A stretch of DNA of 64,000 bases from Sebaldella termitidis ATCC 33386 (GTDB lineage: Bacteria > Fusobacteriota > Fusobacteriia > Fusobacteriales > Leptotrichiaceae), in the NCBI RefSeq assembly GCF_000024405.1, contig NC_013517.1, positions 2,418,001 through 2,482,000 on the forward strand, written 5' to 3'. The notes below the pieces were generated by a model. That model was given only the letters and a program-made list of their open reading frames with translations. It had not been told where the DNA came from and ran no database searches. This document shows, in pieces, positions 15 to 57,502 of the stretch; the first letter of the stretch is position 1; every line of letters starts with the position of its first letter. A program made the position numbers and the translations under genes.

Positions 15-3000
15 TCAAAATACTGCCTTTAATATTACTCCTGCTCTGTAATCATTTTCCTTATCATTTCCTGTTGAGTATTCTCCTGTCAGGAATATTC
101 CGTATCTGTCTTCCGCCTCTACTCCTATTGCCGCTTTTGTTCTGAATGTTCCCTTTTCGTCCTGCGGTTTTGCAAGCTTATGATATCCGTCCTCTATAGC
201 TGTCAGTCTTGCTTTTTCCCTTTCATTCAGATCTGAAAGCTCATATTCATAAGCAAAATCAAGGGTTCCTTTTAGCTGCCACGCTGTTCTGTTTCCTAAA
301 GGCATCATTCCTTTCAATTCTACTCCAGCTCTTGGTTTCGCACTCCATGCATCATTGCCTTCTACCTCAAGAGCTTCCAGTCCGTTTTCATTAAATGCAG
401 GTCTTGTCACATACATTGCCCTGAATGCTCCATACGGCATTATACTCGCATTCTTGCCTAGACCAAATGCCTTTCCAAGTATATTATCACTTGTGATACT
501 GTATGTTTCATATGTTCCGTTCATTTCCGATCTGCCTAGCGGCGACGGCCAGTCTATATTTCTGTCTATATTATGAATACTTGCCCTTCCCGTAAGGTCA
601 TTTCTCAGCTGCCATCCATTTGCTGCATATTTATTATGTACCCCGAGCTGGATTGTATCGACCCATTCTTCACTCTCATTTCCGTCCTTGAATTCAAAGC
701 CTGTGTGTAAATATCCAAGTGAATATCCGAATGTATGTCTATAGGTTCTTTCTACTTCACGTAAAGCCAGTACTCCCGTAGTTGTATAATCATAACCTGT
801 TACTCCGTCTGTTTCCTCTTTATTTTTACCTTTTCCTGCTATTACACTTATTTTTACATTTTCTTTTGTATTATTTGAGGAATCCTGAAGTAAATGCAGC
901 GAGTCTTCAAATGCCTTTGCTATATCATATTCTCTCTGATTTATATTAGCGTATACCTCTCCTGCCAGACTCGACATTATCTGTCGGAATTCTTCCTCAG
1001 TCTTTATGTATGCTGTTTTATTATAAATCTGCATTGCATCTCCGGAAGCTCCCAGAAAATTTTCTTCAAGGGCAGTTCCAAAATCTTCAAACCATAATCC
1101 GTCTGTAAAATCCGTAAATGCTTTTCTTGCCATATATACATTTGCTCCGGTTCCTGTTGCTTCTGGTGTTGCTTCCCATAATAACGAGCCGCTTATAAAT
1201 TCATAATTTCCTCCGGATGCTATAACTGCATTTTCTATCTTATATACATTTGCATTTGTCCCGTCTGCAAATCCCGGAAGTATTATTATCGGCTTATCTG
1301 TTATCAGCGTGTCTGCTACTATTGAAGCTCCGTTTGCCACAAACTGAGGGCCTGAAGATACAGAAGTCTGATAAACCACACTTTCAGGATTTACTTTTAT
1401 TGATAAAGATATCCCGTCTGCTGCCAATACACCGTCTGACTGAATAATTCCGCCGTTTATTAAACTGGGTATTTCGTGGCTTATCCCTATAACACTCGAT
1501 ATTGTTGCATTTGATCCTAGAATCAATGTCCCGTTATTCTCATAAGTCGAACCTGCCCCTAATAAAAATGCAGTGCTTTTATTGCCAGTTGTCCCGCTCA
1601 TATCAATCAGCCCGTTATTTACCGCTTTCGAGCTTATATTGGCAAACATACCGGTTACATTATTTCCAGACATTATTATATTTCCGTTATTTATTATTGT
1701 TCCATTTTTATTGGCAGCCATTCCTATTGAATCATCACCTGATATAGTTATTGTAATTCCTAATGCATTCTCTATTACCCCGTTATCTACAAACAATCCG
1801 GTTGCACCCTTGCCAGTTCCGTTTATATTTCCCTGATTCACTACAGGTATAGTATTATCTCTTGTATATATTCCTATCCCGTTTTCTTTTATGTTTATAG
1901 TTCCTGTATTATTTATCTGAGAACCGTCTCCGTATATTCCCACTGCATATCCGCTGTTATCATAATCTATTGTACCGTCTGAATTATATCTAAGTACTGA
2001 ATCTCCTGTATTTATTATTCCGCTGTTATTTATAATACCATTTTTGGCATATATTCCGATATTCGATTTTCCGGAACTTCCGTTTATATCTGCACTGTTA
2101 GTCACAGTTCCGCCGTTTACAAGGAAATAAGCTATATTATTATCTCCTGTTATGTTTATATCCGCACCGGGAGCACTTATAACTGTATTAGCACCGTCTG
2201 AATATACTCCTGTTCCTTTTCCGTTAAGATTTATTATATTATTATTGTTAAGGGTAGAATTTGTTTCCAGTACAAATCCATATCCGCCGTTGCCTACTGA
2301 TAAATTTGCACTGTTATTATGTATTGCAGTCCCGTTTGTTCCATATACCCCGATTGCTTCATTCTGTCCTACTGATATTGTACTTCCGGCTCCAAGAGTA
2401 ACTATTCCGCCTTTTGTATAAATTCCTGTTCCTGTTTCACCTATTACAAAAGTCCCGGACTGATTCACTGCTGCACCTTCTGCATAAATACCTATCGACT
2501 TGTTTCCGGTATCTATGATGCCGTTGTTCGTTATAATATCACCCGGAGCCGCTGTATAAATACCTATTCCCGGATCATTTACATCAGAAGAGTCCCCGAT
2601 TTTTACCGTTCCGTTATTTATCAATGTTTTGGCCGGCCCTACCGCATAAATACCTATTGACTTATTACCGCTTAAATCTATCAAATTATTATTTACTATC
2701 GGATTTACTACATTATCAGTATAGATACCCACTGCTCTGTTCCCCCTGCTAAGTATCATTCCGCTGTTATCTGCTGTCTGGCCGTCTTTTAGATAAATCC
2801 CCTGAGAGTCTGATCCTATAATTAAAGTTCCGCTATTTAGGGCATTTGATGTACTTCCTGTGGCATATATTGCAGTAGAATCATTTCCTACACTTATTAC
2901 ACCCCCGTTATTATATGCACTGGTCCCCCCTATAGCATATAAGCCGGCTGATGAATTATTTAATGTAATTGTTCCTCTGTTTTCAGCTTCTATTCCTGCT

Positions 3001-6000
3001 GTAAATCCCGGCAGTACAGGAAGTGTATAAATACCATCCACATATATGCCGATATTATTATTGCCTGTAGTACTTACATTTGCACCTCCGTCAAATAATA
3101 CCATGGAATTTTTGGCTGATATCATAGCACCGTTCCCGCTGAGCGCCACAGAATCATTATAATAATATGTACCGTTTGCAATACTTCCAAGTGTATAAGT
3201 TCCGGAACCGCTGGTATTAATCGTCATCAGATTATTAAATATCATTCCGGGATTTGTATTTAAATTAAATATTGTTACTCCCTGTCCTGATACATTTACT
3301 GTTGTCCCTGCTGCTGCACTAAAATCCGTTGAGCCTTTCAGATAAAAGCCAAGTGCATTATCCCCTGTTATATTTATAGTTCCCCCTGTTAATGTTACAT
3401 TACTGTCCTCGGCATATACGGCTATTCCGTTTTTGCCCACAGTGATGTCTCCCGCTGAATTCAGTATGGTATTTTTAGCATATACTCCGACAAGATCTCC
3501 TGCCAAAGCATTTGTTACAGAACTTAAATCAATTATAGAACCTGAATTCAGTGTTATATGCGAGCTTCCGCTGTTGTCATTATCTGCTACTATTCCATAG
3601 GCTTTATTTATACCAGTAGATTTTATACTGTCGAAATTTGTTACTGATATATTTTTTGTTCCGTAAGTTGGTGTCGAGCCCGGAGTTATATTTGTTCCGT
3701 ACACTCCAATTCCGTTATCGCCGAATTCTATTTTTCCGTAGTTTTCTGTTATTGTCCCATTAGTTCCATATAAGCCTACCCCGTTATCGGATACTTTTAT
3801 TATTCCGGCGGCAGCATTATTTAATGATCCGTAGCTGGCGTACATTCCGGTTGAATTTACTCCGTTAAGTACTATTGTCCCGTTATTTGTCATACTCATA
3901 TCTGTGTTTGTTATACCGGCTATACTGTCATTTTCCTGACCAATTCCTATAAGACCTGCTTCTGTCCCGCTTAATGTTTTTCCGCTGCCAAGTGTTATTC
4001 TTGAAGAAGCAACAAGCAAATCCCTGTATTTGACATTAGTTACCGCACCAGAATCAATGCTTGAATCTTCATCAATTTCCAGATGGCCCTTATAGACTTT
4101 TGCTTTATCTGATCCTGACATGACAACATGCGCCGACATTATTGAAGTAAAAGTTCCCAGATCCGAAATATTTATTTTTGCATTTTGAATTACCATTGCA
4201 TATGAATTCGGATTTAGATTAAATGTAAGAGTTCCCCCGGCGGAATTAAACATATTAGTTATATCTGCAGGATTTATAGGAGCATTTAATCCGCTTCCTA
4301 CATATTGAAATCCAATACTGCCCGCCCCGACATTTACTGCTGTATTCCCGGTAATACTATAACCGCCGCCGTTCTTTGAATAAAATGCATATGCATCAGT
4401 TCCGCTTACATTTAAAACCAGTCCCCCGATTTTAAAATTTGAACTTACCACACCATCGGAAAAAAGTGCTATTGAATTATCTCCGCTTACAGTTAATTTA
4501 TTGGAAAGAGTCGTATTCGTTGCAGCTCCTTTAGAATATACCCCGATTCCTTTATCCCCGTAAACCTCTATTTCTCCTGCATTAACAAACGTCCCCTCAT
4601 TATATACCCCTGCTGACAGATTCGTGGAAGTATTTTGGAGCAGGAGCTTTCCAGCGGAAGAGTTCGTTCCCTGACTGGCAGAGCCTAATACTGACATTCC
4701 TACAGCCCCTGCATCATTAGAACCTATGGGTTTTACTCTTTCCGAATTATTAATAATGACTCCGCTGTTAGTTACCCAGCCGCCGTTATATGCCACAAGT
4801 CCTTTTGCATTTTTAGCAGTATTGGTTATAGTTATGTCTGCATTATTCACTATTTTTCCTACCTGAGAGGCGGACTGTCCAGTTCCGTTTGCCATAAATA
4901 ATATATTATCAATACCGTTTGTTATAACTCCGCCCAGTGTTGTTACTCCTGTATCATAAGAACCTATTCTGGCTCCCACGCTTGCATCAATTATAGTTGT
5001 ATATCTGTCACTACGCACAAGAATACTGTCTATTGAGTCATCACCATAAGTTAAGGATTTTATCTGTATACCTGTCAGCTCTATATCATTGGTTTGCAAA
5101 ACAGCAAAAGAAGAATTTCTTAATATTCCCACATTCTGCTCACCATCAACCCGTAAATTCAGATTGCTTATATTGTCAACATAACCCACAGCACCTATTT
5201 TTTTGGATAATGATAATCCTATGTTTTTATTTCCCTTGATATTTATAAGTCCGTCTCCCCCGGCTCCGTATTTCCCGGAATCACTTTTCTCCCCGTGAAT
5301 TCTTACATTATCAAAATAATTTTGTGAAGAGGAAAAAATATCATAAACTCTTACTCCGTAATTTTCTGTTCCGTTTATTTCAATATCTCCCGTATACATA
5401 TCCGAATTCAGGGGTCCGTCATTATAAGCGCCGAAATCTATACCTATACTGTTGGAACTGTTACTGCCCAATATTATTTTCCCGAGATTATAGGTCTGAG
5501 ACGGCGTACCAAAATCACCATATGCAAATTCTTTTTCCAAGGTTATTCCTATCATCTGTGTACCGTTATTCAGATATATATTCCCGCTGTTTATAAGCAT
5601 GGAATAAGTTGTTGAGGGAATAGGCGAAGAAAATCCTGCCAGTATTTGATGTTCCAGACCAATCAGATAACCGCCTCCTGTATTATTAAGTTCCAGATTG
5701 CCGGAAAAATCCAGATACTGTGTCGTACTGATTGCATATGGATTATAACTGACAAATCTTGTCTGTCCGGCTATTGTATGATCTATCTGCCAGTCTCCTT
5801 TTATGGTTACGCTTTGATTTATTACACTGCTGTATAAAGCCGGCGGAACACCTGTTCTGGCTACTGTACTGTTCCATGTCGTCAATGCTCCATTCCCGTA
5901 TCTGATATTTCCTGAAAAACTACCGCCGGGACCTGTTATCAAAGTAGTCAGTGAATCTGCAATTACTTCTTTATAATTATCTATCATAACATCAGAAGTT

Positions 6001-6704
6001 GTTGTCGTCCTGAAAGCAGAAGAAGTTCCCTGTATAAATCCCGTAACCTGAAACGAAAGCTGCGGTACTGAAAAAGGCGGTGTTATGTTTACATCTAATT
6101 CAGCCGGCTGGAATTTACTCATTGATACCAAAGGAGTAAGTGACGGTGATGGAATTATTACTGTATTAAAGCTTCCGGATACAGTCGGACCTGAATTTGG
6201 TTTGACATTAAAATCCGAAAAATTTCTGTTTGTTACATTTATTGGAATATTTACCCCCAGATTTATTTCCTTCGGCTGCTGAAGCTCCTTATATGGCTTT
6301 CCGGCTGTACCGTCTTTGAAGCCGCTTGTTACTATATGGCTGCCTGTTGTGTCATAATATCCTGTTACTTTTGAATGATACAATGCATTTTCCGAACTGT
6401 TATCCCTGCCCTCATTATATTCGTCATAAAATCCCGCAAAGAATACCTGCCATTCGAGATATTCAGGCTTTACTATGTAATCATTCTGTAAATATAAATC
6501 TTTTAATTCTTTATTTTTTTGCTTAAGTATTTTTTCTATTGTTTGGTAAGTTTTTTCATTCGATTTACTGGTTTCCATATTTTTTACTATGCTATTATAC
6601 ATTCTGTCATATTTTGCCGAAGATATCCCTGATGCAGGCGCATAAGACGATGCCATTGCATTTAATGCCAGAAACGATACTAATAATTTTTTATTTTTTT
6701 TCAT
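15..6704 (-). CDS. Giant autotransporter adhesin (type Va secretion), 2229 aa
   Basis: A secreted surface protein that should cross the inner membrane by Sec and insert a C-terminal beta-barrel in the outer membrane to display its passenger. Residues 1-25 are a signal peptide (MKKNKKLLVSFLALNAMASS). Residues about 30-100 form a charged helical region that also occurs in the second autotransporter at 50195-57502 (shared KNKELKDLYLQ and PEYLEWQVFF). The passenger is thousands of bases of degenerate N-x-G / GIY repeats (NNGTI, SIGIYA, GTGIYT), typical of a right-handed beta-helix. The last 280 or so residues are the barrel, ending in a terminal Phe (KAVF). The start has an ideal AGGAGG eight bases upstream. 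The genes expected just upstream are decayed (see the relics at 6713-7111). Ligand is unknown; an adhesin role is inferred from family. Confidence 0.93.
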   Translation of the reverse strand: MKKNKKLLVSFLALNAMASSYAPASGISSAKYDRMYNSIVKNMETSKSNEKTYQTIEKILKQKNKELKDLYLQNDYIVKPEYLEWQVFFAGFYDEYNEGRDNSSENALYHSKVTGYYDTTGSHIVTSGFKDGTAGKPYKELQQPKEINLGVNIPINVTNRNFSDFNVKPNSGPTVSGSFNTVIIPSPSLTPLVSMSKFQPAELDVNITPPFSVPQLSFQVTGFIQGTSSAFRTTTTSDVMIDNYKEVIADSLTTLITGPGGSFSGNIRYGNGALTTWNSTVARTGVPPALYSSVINQSVTIKGDWQIDHTIAGQTRFVSYNPYAISTTQYLDFSGNLELNNTGGGYLIGLEHQILAGFSSPIPSTTYSMLINSGNIYLNNGTQMIGITLEKEFAYGDFGTPSQTYNLGKIILGSNSSNSIGIDFGAYNDGPLNSDMYTGDIEINGTENYGVRVYDIFSSSQNYFDNVRIHGEKSDSGKYGAGGDGLINIKGNKNIGLSLSKKIGAVGYVDNISNLNLRVDGEQNVGILRNSSFAVLQTNDIELTGIQIKSLTYGDDSIDSILVRSDRYTTIIDASVGARIGSYDTGVTTLGGVITNGIDNILFMANGTGQSASQVGKIVNNADITITNTAKNAKGLVAYNGGWVTNSGVIINNSERVKPIGSNDAGAVGMSVLGSASQGTNSSAGKLLLQNTSTNLSAGVYNEGTFVNAGEIEVYGDKGIGVYSKGAATNTTLSNKLTVSGDNSIALFSDGVVSSNFKIGGLVLNVSGTDAYAFYSKNGGGYSITGNTAVNVGAGSIGFQYVGSGLNAPINPADITNMFNSAGGTLTFNLNPNSYAMVIQNAKINISDLGTFTSIMSAHVVMSGSDKAKVYKGHLEIDEDSSIDSGAVTNVKYRDLLVASSRITLGSGKTLSGTEAGLIGIGQENDSIAGITNTDMSMTNNGTIVLNGVNSTGMYASYGSLNNAAAGIIKVSDNGVGLYGTNGTITENYGKIEFGDNGIGVYGTNITPGSTPTYGTKNISVTNFDSIKSTGINKAYGIVADNDNSGSSHITLNSGSIIDLSSVTNALAGDLVGVYAKNTILNSAGDITVGKNGIAVYAEDSNVTLTGGTINITGDNALGFYLKGSTDFSAAAGTTVNVSGQGVTIFNLNTNPGMIFNNLMTINTSGSGTYTLGSIANGTYYYNDSVALSGNGAMISAKNSMVLFDGGANVSTTGNNNIGIYVDGIYTLPVLPGFTAGIEAENRGTITLNNSSAGLYAIGGTSAYNNGGVISVGNDSTAIYATGSTSNALNSGTLIIGSDSQGIYLKDGQTADNSGMILSRGNRAVGIYTDNVVNPIVNNNLIDLSGNKSIGIYAVGPAKTLINNGTVKIGDSSDVNDPGIGIYTAAPGDIITNNGIIDTGNKSIGIYAEGAAVNQSGTFVIGETGTGIYTKGGIVTLGAGSTISVGQNEAIGVYGTNGTAIHNNSANLSVGNGGYGFVLETNSTLNNNNIINLNGKGTGVYSDGANTVISAPGADINITGDNNIAYFLVNGGTVTNSADINGSSGKSNIGIYAKNGIINNSGIINTGDSVLRYNSDGTIDYDNSGYAVGIYGDGSQINNTGTINIKENGIGIYTRDNTIPVVNQGNINGTGKGATGLFVDNGVIENALGITITISGDDSIGMAANKNGTIINNGNIIMSGNNVTGMFANISSKAVNNGLIDMSGTTGNKSTAFLLGAGSTYENNGTLILGSNATISSVIGISHEIPSLINGGIIQSDGVLAADGISLSIKVNPESVVYQTSVSSGPQFVANGASIVADTLITDKPIIILPGFADGTNANVYKIENAVIASGGNYEFISGSLLWEATPEATGTGANVYMARKAFTDFTDGLWFEDFGTALEENFLGASGDAMQIYNKTAYIKTEEEFRQIMSSLAGEVYANINQREYDIAKAFEDSLHLLQDSSNNTKENVKISVIAGKGKNKEETDGVTGYDYTTTGVLALREVERTYRHTFGYSLGYLHTGFEFKDGNESEEWVDTIQLGVHNKYAANGWQLRNDLTGRASIHNIDRNIDWPSPLGRSEMNGTYETYSITSDNILGKAFGLGKNASIMPYGAFRAMYVTRPAFNENGLEALEVEGNDAWSAKPRAGVELKGMMPLGNRTAWQLKGTLDFAYEYELSDLNEREKARLTAIEDGYHKLAKPQDEKGTFRTKAAIGVEAEDRYGIFLTGEYSTGNDKENDYRAGVILKAVF

Positions 6705-6712
6705 TATTCCTC

Positions 6713-6965
6713 CTACGCTATTAATTCCTCTTCATCCTGTTTTTATTCTGTCCGGTTTAGTACATCAGTATTCTCTTTTTTCCAATAGTATACATACTGA
6801 ACCCTGAAATTTTTGTAAGAATTTTTCATATGACTAATATCCGCTGCCCTGTGTTCTGATCATAATCCTTTGTTATGCTTTCTTCCAATGATCTTTCTAT
6901 TCTTGTTTTATTACAGTGAATAGTAAACAACAATACCAGCAATAAAAAATCAATATTTTTTTATT
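6713..6965 (-). pseudogene. Decayed copy of the 95-aa exported protein gene (parent at 12665-12952)
   Basis: Read on the - strand, this stretch keeps clear traces of the 95-aa gene. A KKIL-type signal start is followed by a segment reading EESITKDYDQ, against EDSITKDYDQ in the intact gene. After a frame change come YVYYWKK, then LNRTE, a stop, and DEEEL, matching the parent's RGYWY, LDRIK and EEEEL. The start codon position reads AAT, and there is at least one frameshift and one in-frame stop. The terminal TAG lies inside the SD sequence of the downstream autotransporter. An SD (GGAGG) survives in front of the lost start, overlapping the end of the preceding relic as in an operon. Confidence 0.72.
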
Positions 6966-7111
6966 TTACCTCCTGTTTTGAGAATTTATTAAGATATTTC
7001 AAAACCTTGTTCTGTTTTAAATCTTTTTTAGCTTTACAATCCGATTTTATCAGCTTCCTCCATTTTGTCTTCACAGCTTACCATAGTTGTTATTACAAAT
7101 ATAAGCTTACT
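6961..7111 (-). pseudogene. Decayed copy of the 69-aa exported protein gene (parent at 12964-13173)
   Basis: The - strand reads KLIFVITT..., then MEEADKI, and after a 2-base frame shift CKAKKD...NKVLKYLNK, then a stop. The intact gene at 12964-13173 reads KKLIIAV, MEKADKI, YRAKKD and NKVLKYLNK at the same spacing. The start position reads AGT instead of ATG, although a strong SD (AAGGAGGAAGGAG) remains upstream. Order and orientation relative to the next relic are the same as in the intact operon. It is therefore a fossil of a duplicated operon, not a random match. Confidence 0.75.
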
Positions 7112-7159
7112 TCTCCTTCCTCCTTTCAGAAAATAACGATACTTAAGCAGGTTACTATT

Positions 7160-7318
7160 CGTATTTGTTAAATTTTACGAATAAAAAACTATTCTTTTAT
7201 ATGTCAAATATTAATCTGATAAATAGTTACTGAAAAATTTTTTCTATTAAAATTGACTTTAAAGATTAAATTTAGTAAAATATTCATAATTGTTTATTTG
7301 TAAAATTTAACAAATACG
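7160..7318. repeat. MITE-like element with 25-bp terminal inverted repeats
   Basis: The arms 7160-7184 (CGTATTTGTTAAATTTTAC...) and 7294-7318 are inverted copies matching at 24 of 25 positions. Pairing continues imperfectly inward. The interior of about 110 bp is very AT-rich and has no ORF. No convincing target duplication is seen, so it could also be a large hairpin or paired operator sites. Confidence 0.5.
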
Positions 7319-7642
7319 TCTTTTTTTTTAATATTTTATATAATTATACCACTTTTTTATAATTATTTTCTCTGCCTTATAAAATTTTAATATTTATTTC
7401 TATAATCAGATATTAATAATGAAGTTTTTTTATTAATAAGATTGAATCTTTTTTATAAAAGTTATTATTAAAATCTTTTTTTTATAAAAAAACAGTATAT
7501 TTTTATATTCAAAATTAATCATTATTTCCATTTTTATTGCATGAACATTTGTTAATACATCTAAATTTTTCAAAATTTCTATATTATTCATATCTAATTT
7601 CTTTTTATATTAAGAAAAAGTAATATATAAATCCATAAAAAA

Positions 7643-12371: not shown

Positions 12372-12641
12372 TTATCTGATATTGTTTTCTGCCTTGTACT
12401 GCTCGATTCTAAATAGAAGATCTTCTATTTCCTGTATTTCAGCTACTTTTTTATCTATTTGCTTATCCACCTTAGTCAGCTCTTTTTCCAGTCTTGTTCC
12501 ACTGTTTAAATGCTGTCTAAGATTTGTCCACTTTCCTCTTGCTCCTTCTCTTAATTCTCTTCTATACTCATAAGTAGGAGCTGCACTTGCCATCATTCCT
12601 GCAAATACACATAAAGTCATTATAATCCCAAATTTTTTCAT
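12372..12641 (-). CDS. Small exported coiled-coil protein, FadA-like, 89 aa
   Basis: Residues 1-20 are a signal peptide (MKKFGIIMTLCVFAGMMASA). The mature part of about 69 residues is highly charged, with a heptad-like helix from about residue 45 (SGTRLEKELTKVDKQIDKK, then AEIQEIEDLLFRIEQY). Its size, export signal and single long helix resemble the FadA/Fad-I group of fusobacterial small adhesins, but the similarity is compositional and the length is shorter than FadA. It is third in an operon of three small exported proteins, 23 bases after the second gene. SD AGAGGAG. Orthologous small genes often precede autotransporter genes in this phylum (for example the rad locus). Confidence 0.7.
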   Translation of the reverse strand: MKKFGIIMTLCVFAGMMASAAPTYEYRRELREGARGKWTNLRQHLNSGTRLEKELTKVDKQIDKKVAEIQEIEDLLFRIEQYKAENNIR

Positions 12642-12664: not shown

Positions 12665-12952
12665 TTATCTTTTTCTTCTCATTCTTGCCTGTTCATCTGG
12701 CATTAATTCTTCCTCTTCAGCTTTTATTCTATCAAGCATAGTATACCAGTAACCTCTTTTTTCAGGTAGTGTTACATATACTGATTCCTGAGCTCTTCTT
12801 AAAGCTTTTTCATATGATGAGTATACACCGTCCTGATCATAATCTTTTGTTATACTATCTTCAACAGATTTACTCACCTGAACATCACCCTCTGCACCAT
12901 ACGCTGCAAAAGCCATTGTTCCCACTAAAAAAACCAATAGTATTTTTTTCAT
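12665..12952 (-). CDS. Small exported protein of the autotransporter-associated trio, 95 aa
   Basis: Signal peptide at residues 1-19 (MKKILLVFLVGTMAFAAYG), then an acidic-helical mature chain containing SITKDYDQDGVYSSYEKALR and a basic C terminus (QARMRRKR). No recognised domain; DQDG resembles a short acidic turn only. It is second in the operon, with SD AAGGAG 11 bases after the preceding stop. A decayed paralogue lies at 6713-6965, directly before an autotransporter gene, which ties this family to autotransporter expression or surface assembly by context. Confidence 0.7.
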   Translation of the reverse strand: MKKILLVFLVGTMAFAAYGAEGDVQVSKSVEDSITKDYDQDGVYSSYEKALRRAQESVYVTLPEKRGYWYTMLDRIKAEEEELMPDEQARMRRKR

Positions 12953-12963
12953 AAAAATTCTCC

Positions 12964-13173
12964 TTACTTTCTTGTTTTATTTAAGTACTTAAGTACTTTG
13001 TTATATTCAGTTTTATGCCATGCCACATCTTTTTTAGCTCTATAATTTTCGATTTTATCGGCTTTCTCCATTTGTGCTTGCATATCAGGCATTTCTGGTA
13101 TAGCTTTTTCTTTCTTAGCTCCCAGAGACATTATACTTAATGCCATTAATACAGCAATGATTAACTTTTTCAT
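12964..13173 (-). CDS. Small exported protein of the autotransporter-associated trio, 69 aa
   Basis: Signal peptide MKKLIIAVLMALSIMSLGA, then a short basic chain of about 50 residues with MEKADKIENYRAKKD and NKVLKYLNKTRK. No domain recognised. It is first in the operon, preceded by a strong SD (AGGAGGAG) and by a near-consensus promoter at 13246-13273. A frameshifted paralogue without a start codon is at 6961-7111. Confidence 0.7.
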   Translation of the reverse strand: MKKLIIAVLMALSIMSLGAKKEKAIPEMPDMQAQMEKADKIENYRAKKDVAWHKTEYNKVLKYLNKTRK

Positions 13174-56100: not shown

Positions 56101-57502
56101 ATCTATTATCTGTAGTATGCCCCAGTGTAGTATCCAGAAATTTATTCCCTAATTCTGTTTTTTCAGCAGCTGTAATCCAGTTTCTTTCCTCCAGCTCATC
56201 AAGTGCATAATTTTTCCATTCTCCTGTAACAGGATCCTGCATACCGCTGTAATGTTCATCATAGTGAAGGATCTGTACCAAATAATCTGCATTTACTACA
56301 TCCCCTTCAAGTGTTACTTTCAAATCATTAACATTCCCGCCTGCAGTCCCAAATCTTGTTATTGGATTATCTATTACTTTAAATAATCCCTGCACCTGAC
56401 CACCCTGCGGATTATTATTAATAGAGTTTGTATATATTCCTGTTGGTAGCAGTGCCTCTTCATAGGTCCATGTTCCTAATACAGGGTCATAAGTCCCTCT
56501 TTGATTATATTCAAGACCGGCAGATGGTGTTCCTATTACATTATCCAATGTATAGTCATAAAATCCCGGATTTGTAGTTGACCAGGTCAACACTGGGTTA
56601 ATATTCGTTCTCACATTTATAGTTCCGCTCGTAATATCCATCTGTGATATTATTGAGTTTGATCCATTATCATCTCCATAAGGGAAGAAACCTGTTATTC
56701 CTCCGTTTCCTCCTCCTGTACCATTCAGACTTAATACTGGTATCGAATTAAAGTTTATTGTTGTTATATTTGGTATTGTCGGATTAAATGATGTTATATT
56801 CAGATTCGGTATATCCAGTGCATCCGGCATTGTGAATTCAAGAGTTCCGCTCTCTAAATCCGATACTGCTACATCAGTTATCAGAAGATCAGTTATCCCT
56901 CTGTCCACACCTTTCATATTAATGCTAATTCCTAAATCCACTACTTTAACATCATTATCATTTCTATATGGCTTAAATTTTCCTAATGTACTGTAAGTCA
57001 TTCCCTGAAATAATTTGTCAACTAATTCTTTTTGGTTTGTCGACAATTTTTCATAATCTGCTTTGTTTCCTTTTAGTATACTTTGCAGCATATCGTTACT
57101 TACTCCGCTTTGCAGTATACTGTTATATATTTCTCCACTTATTGTATTTAAACTTCCCGCTGTTTCCGGAAATGCATAGTACTTTGCATTATCCAGCGTA
57201 TTATCTCCTCTTTCTTTTTCACTGTAAAAACCGCTGAAAAATACCTGCCATTCGAGATATTCCGGCTTTACTACATAGTCTCCCTGTAAATACAAATCTT
57301 TTAATTCTTTATTCTTTTTATTAAGTATATTTTCAAGCAGTTCATAATTTGATTTATTTGACTTTCCTGTTTCGGCATTTTTTATCATTTTATTATATAG
57401 CTGATCGTACTTTACCTGATTTACTCCGGATTGAGCACTGCCCGCTGCGACTGCAAGCGAGTTTAATGCTAAAACAGTTAATAATTTTTTATTTCTTTTC
57501 AT
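50195..57502 (-). CDS. Giant autotransporter adhesin (type Va secretion), about 2435 aa
   Basis: Same architecture as the protein at 15-6704. A signal peptide (MKRNKKLLTVLALNSLAVAA) is followed by a conserved helical region (NKKNKELKDLYLQGDYVVKPE, then YLEWQVFF). A unique segment to about residue 300 is followed by a beta-helix passenger of N-x-G / GIY repeats. The final 280 or so residues are a barrel ending KAVF that is close to the first protein's (shared SITSDN, NGLEALEVEGNDAWS, LNERE). The ATG at 57502 with SD AAGGAGACG is preferred; the frame opens 36 bases earlier. Unlike many autotransporters in this phylum, no small exported genes precede it; the upstream region has a promoter, AT-rich DNA and a repeat. 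Confidence 0.93.
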   Translation of the reverse strand: MKRNKKLLTVLALNSLAVAAGSAQSGVNQVKYDQLYNKMIKNAETGKSNKSNYELLENILNKKNKELKDLYLQGDYVVKPEYLEWQVFFSGFYSEKERGDNTLDNAKYYAFPETAGSLNTISGEIYNSILQSGVSNDMLQSILKGNKADYEKLSTNQKELVDKLFQGMTYSTLGKFKPYRNDNDVKVVDLGISINMKGVDRGITDLLITDVAVSDLESGTLEFTMPDALDIPNLNITSFNPTIPNITTINFNSIPVLSLNGTGGGNGGITGFFPYGDDNGSNSIISQMDITSGTINVRTNINPVLTWSTTNPGFYDYTLDNVIGTPSAGLEYNQRGTYDPVLGTWTYEEALLPTGIYTNSINNNPQGGQVQGLFKVIDNPITRFGTAGGNVNDLKVTLEGDVVNADYLVQILHYDEHYSGMQDPVTGEWKNYALDELEERNWITAAEKTELGNKFLDTTLGHTTDNRWFQYVENNSSWNLKGSNVVAVNLQAHSGYQDANSIFMNRGEIIGLNEASSTNNLVGKHVAFMFTEGGSQRKQEGFDNTGLIEMRAPESVLFLMTNNAYSYSYNESNDSYGNNNISDNPGKHILMNNGDMKLYGNNNIGVYTHNAPMMSKNEYAYYYSNGTWNESKSIYNGLQRTEIRLYNPITLLGDQSIGVDIERELNFANSKIKVDIGTEDPRQTAASSAGVNGLENSGNIAGGSSAYTDSAAGIYVNMGNNVMYYSKYVYDQNNPANNVNISGYMAENPQFTLSDYLLNVGEYSRGGVGLRVEDYGDVILGSSSDTTTNHEINLLAGSEGNAGIYLRGSNSSTVTYEPDPVWNPGYTETVDLLGFLGARVTTDGLIMNIDGNKQVGVQIEDYGYFYHKNGNIKVNGTNNTGIAVKTGGTGELSDTGTINVSAGNLGVYNDSTFTMNGGTINVDGLASVGVYSEAGNAGAALNSGTIKSENGGIGLYAGTGSVMNLNQGVNLTAGNKGLLFYNYDGSALTGKYNVTGTVGATVENGGNAFYIKSGTTLTNYLNNSFIGTGNLDLMLKSGSKLYILDGEGGTFNLTALDSVTNAGGAIGNNVTINAASASDYIPVSMNKGTLVLDRNINMDNSSELYKRSEFSSASVSLESGKIITGTQNNQTGIAQRNYAGSSGVDTVKITNIGTVDLSGSGAIGLATDYGHIINNNKVRTTGDKSVGVYSANGTVTENNGDIITGGTSSAGIYGVNYLDGVTDSSVLGYGNNKIDITNNGKIVSEGTGKVYGIYAANNAVPTADSKINLGNGTIDISSSKGGTGVYAVNTTVTGGGTLTVGSDSLGMYAKDSNVNLSGMTLNIKGNNSLGFYLDGTTTFNGNGNINIDGQNIALFNVTSNGIFNNNFTVSSTAGSTYTVGKISNTTFIYDGTSSLSENGSLIMGNNSAVLLDSNSNVSATGNNVVAVSLDGQYIGTLPAGFIPDTDGENRGNITLGDNSAGLYGKNGTRLLNSGNITVGNSSLGMKTNGTGSSLTNSGAVTAGANSVGIYGKETDKVTNTMSGVINGSSPETVGMYLNTSNAGTVTNAGLIDLSGDKARGIHAEGTGIKSINNIGTIRIGDSLNSSNPGIGIYSKTAGDVITNTGTIAVGINSIGVYSLGGTVNQDSVITTGGIGVYADSAAVNLNTGSNLITGDNGAVGVYAINGSNVVNSGTAAVGNGSYGYALKSGSNLTNNSQAAVADNGTFVYGDGAGTISSSGDVILTGSDSFGFYTVNGGAIANSGNITGDTGVSNIAIYNKDGSIYNTGNITVGDSVILDTMNTENNRYAVGIYGKNSQIYNSGDIKVGYYGVGIFGSESNVENHGNIISDAEGAIGLFIENGTLDNYGNVTLSGNSSMGIYANKGATVTNYGIVTVNGDSSQGVYLNLASTLDNQGTININGNNSQGVLLKGEGKLVNSGTINLASGLVNSETVSYGTASSYPVPSIINAGVINVSENFETNGLDISIKADPDSMRTAEIMEDMGAAFVSDAVKFYAPSFSTTDPINIMSGFAAGTHAETYKLKDVFNPTTEEGGPNSGLVKVKSKSLTWSATPVINSRGNVDIWMQKIPYDEFTSGLWFEDFGLALDTKYAGSAGNAGLIFDKIDTIETEYDFRRTMSNLAGDIYANMNQREETIADVFESSLNLLQNSKNNTKENVKINVLAGKGSVKEDTEGVVGYDYETVGALALREVERTYKHTFGYSAGYSHTNFEFKDGNNSEEDVDTVQLGLHSKYKSNDWILRNDLTGRMNLHNVDRNLDWTNAGSSNMSGNYETYSITSDNKLGKEISLGKRASVTPYGGLKAMYTTRPTFSENGLEALEVEGNDAWSVKPRVGVELKGEMPLGSSESWKLKGAVDVAYEYELGDLNEREYAKLVNVETDYHKLAKPEKDKGQIRTGASLGVEVEDRYGIFVTGDYRAGNDKQDDYRVGVTLKAVF

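What the first reader, a model, noticed from the sequence alone, without database searches (positions are those of the whole stretch)
6713..7111. Fossil of a small exported-protein operon in front of an autotransporter, with the intact version 5.5 kb away
Two gene relics with the order, orientation and motifs of the intact genes at 12665-13173 sit directly before the autotransporter. Both lack a start codon (AAT and AGT in place of ATG) yet keep strong SD sequences; both are frameshifted. The third gene of the trio is missing here. In Fusobacteria small exported genes commonly precede autotransporters, so this autotransporter seems to have lost its private accessory genes while an orphan set survives nearby and could act in trans.
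Basis: partly seen in the sequence, partly recalled or inferred. Interest (0 to 1): 0.68.

Follow-up and report, generated by a model that had tools for sequence, protein, structure and literature searches.

The report
Eroded accessory genes behind promoter switch
In the termite-gut bacterium Sebaldella termitidis, a large surface protein has lost its three private helper genes to mutation, one of at least five or six such losses in this protein family, while keeping what looks like a promoter that flips on and off; the loss itself is ordinary gene decay, but the flip-switch and the repeated pattern are worth testing.

Summary
The relic is real. Window 6713-7111 (minus strand) holds decayed copies of two small exported genes (here g1, g2). 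The third, g3, is deleted, and the deletion stops at the autotransporter's own ribosome-binding site. The relic matches the trio profile at E 9.5e-40, and its alignment to the window's intact trio lies 17 SD above shuffles.

The genome is the S. termitidis type strain. It carries about ten trio copies, most directly before autotransporters. The relic's nearest kin is such a linked trio 2 Mb away, not the orphan trio 5.5 kb away, which is an independent insertion also present in two relatives. Relics or partial trios recur before other autotransporters (at least 5-6 independent losses), while intact copies stay under purifying selection. This fits shared, trans-acting helpers, but trans action is not shown.

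Homologous switches precede five intact trio operons; copies without repeats always point toward the gene (Fisher p=2e-4). In a sister metagenome the whole operon was deleted through this repeat, leaving the autotransporter's last codons as a scar. Inversion itself is not demonstrated.

The parts
6973..7111 (-). g1 relic: start lost, 51-bp and 15-bp deletions, 2-bp frameshift, stop lost; SD retained (7112-7124)
6713..6967 (-). g2 relic: start lost, 5-bp deletion, 7-bp insertion in the DxDxDG motif, further 1-bp shift, in-frame stops; 3' end truncated
6711..6718 (-). junction of the ~310-bp deletion that removed g3, fusing truncated g2 to the autotransporter's ribosome-binding site
   Evidence: alignment to the L024, L022, L020 and L023 operons
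15..6704 (-). intact 2229-aa autotransporter (PF03797 barrel, sub-threshold match to the Fusobacteria autotransporter N-terminal domain, distant RadD relative)
7160..7192 (.). proximal arm of a 33-nt inverted repeat (91% complementary), putative recombination site
7286..7318 (.). distal arm of the inverted repeat
7253..7281 (+). promoter TTGACT-N17-TAAAAT inside the repeats, pointing away from the autotransporter (putative OFF state)
12964..13173 (-). g1 of the orphan trio, 69 aa, signal-peptide-like start, sub-threshold FadA similarity
12665..12952 (-). g2 of the orphan trio, 95 aa, EF-hand-like loop DYDQDGVYSSYE
12372..12641 (-). g3 of the orphan trio, 89 aa, predicted long helix, most conserved of the three

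Best explanation
SHOWN: 6713-7111 is the pseudogenised remnant of an autotransporter-linked trio that once formed a four-gene operon g1-g2-g3-autotransporter; g3 was removed by a deletion that spared the autotransporter's ribosome-binding site. SHOWN: the same erosion happened repeatedly before related autotransporters, while intact trios, linked and orphan, remain under purifying selection. SUPPORTED, NOT PROVEN: the operon is driven by a promoter between inverted repeats that a site-specific recombinase flips; in this assembly it faces away (OFF). When it flips to ON, the autotransporter mRNA would carry the roughly 450-nt relic as an untranslated leader. INFERRED: trio proteins are exported, interchangeable helpers (or periplasmic/surface partners) of this autotransporter subfamily, shared in trans between loci. 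Each linked copy is therefore individually dispensable and drifts away, while orphan trios, which are not behind such switches, are kept and supply the protein whichever autotransporter is on.
For: Homology and decay. Operon context: trio directly before the autotransporter in L019, L020 (plasmid), L022, L023, L024, L026 and L044. Recurrent erosion: relics before autotransporters in L027, L092 (same genome), L123, L124 (G001) and L046 (G002); among 29 related autotransporters (clade support 0.92), 10 keep at least g2-g3, 6 have relics and 13 have none; 9 Dollo losses, 6 when weak nodes are collapsed, 5 independent relic lineages. Selection: dN/dS 0.02-0.28 for intact copies. Orphan trios conserved between species, e.g. 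g3 98% identical in G001 at the syntenic place. Switch: inverted repeats in 9 of 77 autotransporter upstream regions versus 0 of 385 shuffles; the shared promoter module faces away in 9 of 11 repeat-flanked copies and toward the gene in 10 of 10 copies without repeats, p=2.2e-4; no such repeats upstream of the orphan trios tested.
Against: No read-level or same-locus evidence of inversion: orthologous switches in G000 and G001 lie in the same orientation, and no recombinase gene was found beside a switch. The two toward-facing switches look like one orthologous pair, so the counts are not fully independent. Nothing tests whether trio proteins act on autotransporters at all, or in trans. Most autotransporters of the genome (about 35 of this family) have no trio, so many family members may never need one. 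The loss count assumes the trio was ancestral in the clade; repeated gain could lower it, although the relics themselves cannot be gains.
Confidence: 0.72

Rival explanations
1. Plain relaxed selection: the autotransporter itself became redundant among about 67 relatives, its operon is dying, and the trio simply went first; no trans supply is involved.
For: 67 PF03797 autotransporters in the genome; the whole operon was deleted in the sister metagenome G002.
Against: The autotransporter frame is open over 2229 codons, its ribosome-binding site and promoter repeats are preserved, and the deletion of g3 stops just before the ribosome-binding site. Other autotransporters with eroded trios are also open.
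Confidence: 0.3
2. The inverted repeats are not recombination sites but operators: a repressor or looping factor binds both arms, and the inner promoter drives something else.
For: Each arm is itself a quasi-palindrome (TTCGTA-N12-TACGAA), as operators often are; orthologous segments are not seen in opposite orientation.
Against: The same promoter module without repeats always faces the autotransporter (10/10), and two repeat-flanked copies carry it facing the gene; an operator model does not explain a promoter reversed as a block. At this locus the away-facing promoter points at the 3' end of a convergent gene.
Confidence: 0.18
3. The relic DNA has been kept as a functional leader, for example for RNA regulation or translational coupling of the autotransporter.
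For: Shine-Dalgarno sequences and the autotransporter's ribosome-binding site persist.
Against: No Rfam family, no terminator-like structure; other autotransporters of the family have the promoter module at -250 to -170 and hence short leaders (L105, L139, L100, L134).
Confidence: 0.07
4. The orphan trio 5.5 kb away is this autotransporter's own trio, moved or duplicated locally.
For: Proximity only.
Against: The relic shares the 6-bp g2 gap and sequence of the linked class and scores best against L024. The orphan is syntenic in G001, which has no autotransporter here.
Confidence: 0.02

Closest known systems
Fusobacterium nucleatum radD operon (rapA/fadA2-rapB-fad-I-radD; PMC7023056)
   Same: Three small exported-protein genes directly before a large type Va autotransporter in one four-gene operon. 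In F. nucleatum the first two are individually dispensable for RadD-mediated coaggregation and loss of the third raises radD expression (PMC7023056), so the small genes need not be secretion factors.
   Different: Sebaldella g1-g3 are shorter (69, 95, 89 aa against 127, 123, 129 aa); no significant family match; g2 and g3 were not found outside the genus among 98 class genomes; no clear lipoprotein signature. No invertible promoter was found described for radD in the papers searched.
Invertible promoters (invertons), e.g. fimS, the C. difficile cwpV and flagellar switches, Bacteroides surface-molecule promoters
   Same: Short inverted repeats (10-40 nt range, PMC11892184) around a sigma-70-type promoter upstream of surface-protein genes; many copies in one genome.
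   Different: Found here by anatomy only, in Fusobacteriota, before autotransporter operons; inversion and recombinase not shown.
FadA adhesin family (PF09403)
   Same: Small exported helical proteins of Fusobacteria, several encoded next to autotransporters in this genome.
   Different: g1 stays below the family cut-off (15.9 against 28.5 bits); true FadA genes are present elsewhere in the genome.

Membership tests
Pseudogenised operon (gene relic) | Sequence homology above chance to intact genes in the same order and strand | tested here: met
Pseudogenised operon (gene relic) | Disrupted start, frame and stop, and loss of codon-position constraint | tested here: met
Invertible promoter (inverton) | Inverted repeats flanking a short segment, more than chance | tested here: met
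   33 nt, 91% complementary; 9/77 upstream regions versus 0/385 shuffles
Invertible promoter (inverton) | Promoter inside the repeats, found in both orientations relative to the gene | tested here: inconclusive
   Both orientations seen among homologous loci, not at one and the same locus
Invertible promoter (inverton) | Reversible inversion in a population | not testable with these tools
   no reads available
Invertible promoter (inverton) | Dedicated site-specific recombinase | tested here: inconclusive
   A 190-aa tyrosine recombinase conserved in G000 and G001 (432 kb) is a candidate by size only; serine recombinases also present
RadD operon / RadD adhesin | RadD equivalog (NF049908 cut-off 3500 bits) | tested here: not met
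   231.5 bits over the C-terminal part only
RadD operon / RadD adhesin | First small gene in the FadA family (PF09403 cut-off 28.5 bits) | tested here: not met
   g1 15.9 bits; 6 of 15 members give weak hits, best E 0.012; profile comparison aligns mostly the N-terminal, signal-peptide half
RadD operon / RadD adhesin | Second and third small genes are lipoproteins | tested here: not met
   g2 and g3 carry ordinary signal-peptide-like starts (read by eye); of the Pfam scans only one g2 member gives a weak lipoprotein-motif hit, E 0.95; no dedicated signal-peptide predictor was available

The most novel reading that the evidence does not exclude
Sebaldella runs a shared-accessory phase-variation system: many autotransporters behind separate invertible promoters, each operon ancestrally carrying the same three small exported helper genes. 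Because orphan trios outside the switches supply the helpers in trans, linked trios erode while the autotransporters and their switches persist.
Probability: 0.4. Interest if true: 0.7.

Novelty: new member of a known kind. Interest (0 to 1): 0.5.

Why it matters
Small exported genes in front of fusobacterial autotransporters are poorly understood. Sebaldella gives a natural experiment: one autotransporter subfamily with intact, partial, fossil and absent trios in one genome, plus conserved orphan trios. That makes the question 'does each adhesin need its own helpers, or are they shared?' directly testable. If the switches invert, it would also add multi-locus phase variation of surface autotransporters to Fusobacteriota, for which the papers searched here gave no report.

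Tried and rejected
Local origin of the relic from the orphan trio 5.5 kb away: rejected by class-specific sequence and by synteny in relatives. Intact orthologue of this relic next to the same autotransporter: sought in G001-G003; G002 has a deletion scar, G001 and G003 show no autotransporter at the site. FadA membership of g1: sub-threshold, profile comparison carried mainly by the N-terminal half. Known family for g2 or g3: none significant in Pfam or NCBIfam. Trio in other Fusobacteriia: none in 94 non-Sebaldella genomes; none in viral contigs; no plasmid record. Same-locus inversion between species: not seen. Recombinase next to a switch: not found; no inverted repeat was found beside the 190-aa recombinase gene. 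RNA family in the leader: none. Structure models: g3 a single long helix (pLDDT 83, pTM 0.44), g2 low confidence (pLDDT 67); judged too uninformative for a fold search.

Full report
IDENTITY. The window lies at 2418001-2482000 of a 4,418,842-bp chromosome with a 54,160-bp plasmid. These sizes are those of the Sebaldella termitidis type strain (PMC3035275), a termite-gut fusobacterium.

THE RELIC IS REAL. Window 6713-7111, minus strand, aligns with a three-gene set (g1, 69 aa; g2, 95 aa; g3, 89 aa, all with signal-peptide-like starts) that occurs about a dozen times in the genome. A profile of 18 intact trios finds it at E 9.5e-40; the best hit in shuffled upstream sequence is 0.13. Pairwise against the window's own intact g1-g2 it stands 17 standard deviations above dinucleotide shuffles, and 30 above for the best copy, L024 at C1:374 kb. 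The alignment shows lost starts, frameshifts in both genes, a lost g1 stop, a 7-bp insertion in the most conserved motif of g2, and a deletion of about 310 bp that removes g3 and the end of g2 but leaves the autotransporter's TAGGAGGAATAATG start region. Substitutions no longer avoid codon positions 1 and 2, whereas intact copies have dN/dS of 0.02-0.28.

WHAT IT BELONGED TO. In this genome the trio sits directly before autotransporters at C1 342, 374, 606, 3560 and 3944 kb and on the plasmid; two more operons keep g2-g3 with a damaged g1 (1014 and 3642 kb). Three trios are orphans (window, 304 kb, 683 kb). The relic shares the linked class's 6-bp gap in g2 and scores best against linked copies, so it is this autotransporter's former trio, not a copy of the orphan 5.5 kb away. 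The orphan is an independent insertion between a CysG-like gene and a WYL regulator. G001 has it in the same place with 91-98% protein identity, G002 has it next to the same CysG-like gene, and G003 lacks it. G001 has no autotransporter between the flanking genes.

THE SITE IN RELATIVES. In G002 the region continues from the promoter repeat straight into the last roughly nine codons of the autotransporter and then the shared downstream genes. So the autotransporter was there in the common ancestor and the whole operon was deleted in that lineage. A metagenome assembly error cannot be fully excluded, but the flanks differ from the type strain throughout, as expected of natural sequence.

RECURRENT EROSION. 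Scanning upstream of about 75 autotransporters in G000 and G001 shows further relics or damaged trios: L027 (1044 kb, g2 frameshifted), L092 (2620 kb), L123 and L124 in G001, plus L046 in G002. On a tree of N-terminal domains, one clade of 29 (support 0.92) mixes 10 autotransporters that keep at least g2-g3, 6 with relics and 13 with none, needing 9 losses, or 6 when weak nodes are collapsed, if the trio was ancestral; 5 relic lineages are independent. The tree rests on about 100 residues, so exact counts are approximate.

A PROBABLE PROMOTER SWITCH. Upstream of the relic are 33-nt inverted repeats (7160-7192 and 7286-7318, 91% complementary, 93 nt apart). Each contains a quasi-palindrome of the type TTCGTA-N12-TACGAA. 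The same arrangement precedes the trio operons L019, L020, L022, L023 and L024 and autotransporters L125, L142 and L027/1055854. Nine of 77 autotransporter upstream regions have such repeats against 0 of 385 shuffles, and the pattern is several-fold enriched genome-wide over its reversed control (14 against 2). Between the repeats lies a conserved module with TTGACT-N17-TAAAAT. In the window it points away from the autotransporter (7253-7281, plus strand). Across loci it points away in 9 of 11 repeat-flanked copies but toward the gene in all 10 copies without repeats (Fisher p=2.2e-4). The simplest reading is an invertible promoter caught mostly OFF, with copies that lost their repeats locked ON. 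This is inference from anatomy: orthologous switches in G000 and G001 lie the same way, the two ON copies look like orthologues, and no reads were available. A 190-aa tyrosine recombinase conserved in G000 and G001 is a candidate enzyme by size only.

FUNCTION. g2 has an EF-hand-like loop (DYDQDGVYSSYE, positions 1, 3, 5, 6 and 12 invariant or nearly so) and a low-confidence helix-loop-helix model. g3 is predicted as one long helix. g1 has sub-threshold FadA similarity. The set is confined to Sebaldella among 98 class genomes (g2 and g3). The best functional parallel is the radD operon of F. nucleatum, where rapA and rapB are individually dispensable for coaggregation and loss of fad-I raises radD expression (PMC7023056); that shows accessory genes before an autotransporter can be lost without killing the adhesin, but it is not homology. 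I infer that trio proteins are interchangeable helpers shared in trans. The evidence is the contrast between repeated erosion of linked copies and conservation of others. It is not a demonstration.

VERDICT. The fossil interpretation is supported; the special role of the nearby orphan is not. A pseudogene operon is ordinary; the recurrent pattern plus the probable promoter switch raise the interest to moderate.

Noticed in passing
window 7157-7321: Probable invertible promoter upstream of the relic, in the orientation facing away from the autotransporter; homologous switches at C1 341.4, 374.0, 605.2, 1054.8 and 3945 kb and on the plasmid.
   Followed up: partly
L147 (G002 contig C150), about window 7173 to 34: Deletion scar: the operon is lost in a sister lineage, leaving the promoter repeat fused to the last codons of the autotransporter.
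   Followed up: yes
L173:3395-3561, L174:3989-4153, L175:3806-3982, L176:3580-3768: Similar repeat-flanked segments that do not precede autotransporters (beside lipoprotein and small exported-protein genes).
   Followed up: partly
L185:3482-4054 (G000:C1:432482-433054, -): 190-aa tyrosine recombinase of FimB-like size, with a counterpart in the same gene order in G001; candidate invertase.
   Followed up: partly
L017:1888-4639 (G000:C1:680.9-683.6 kb): An orphan trio lies just downstream of two true FadA genes, an OmpA-like gene and a 282-aa gene; in G001 the trio and two FadA genes are likewise adjacent.
   Followed up: no
G000:C1 790 kb, 1082 kb, 4279 kb: FadA-family genes lie next to autotransporters of about 3700-3900 residues.
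   Followed up: no
L019 and L022 trios, plasmid copy L020: g2-g3 are nearly identical in protein sequence between distant chromosomal loci and the plasmid, suggesting recent duplication or gene conversion.
   Followed up: no
window 12665-12952: g2 carries a single EF-hand-like calcium-loop motif; in the relic a 7-bp insertion breaks it.
   Followed up: partly
window 57098-57502: A second autotransporter of the family starts in the window without trio, relic or repeats upstream.
   Followed up: yes
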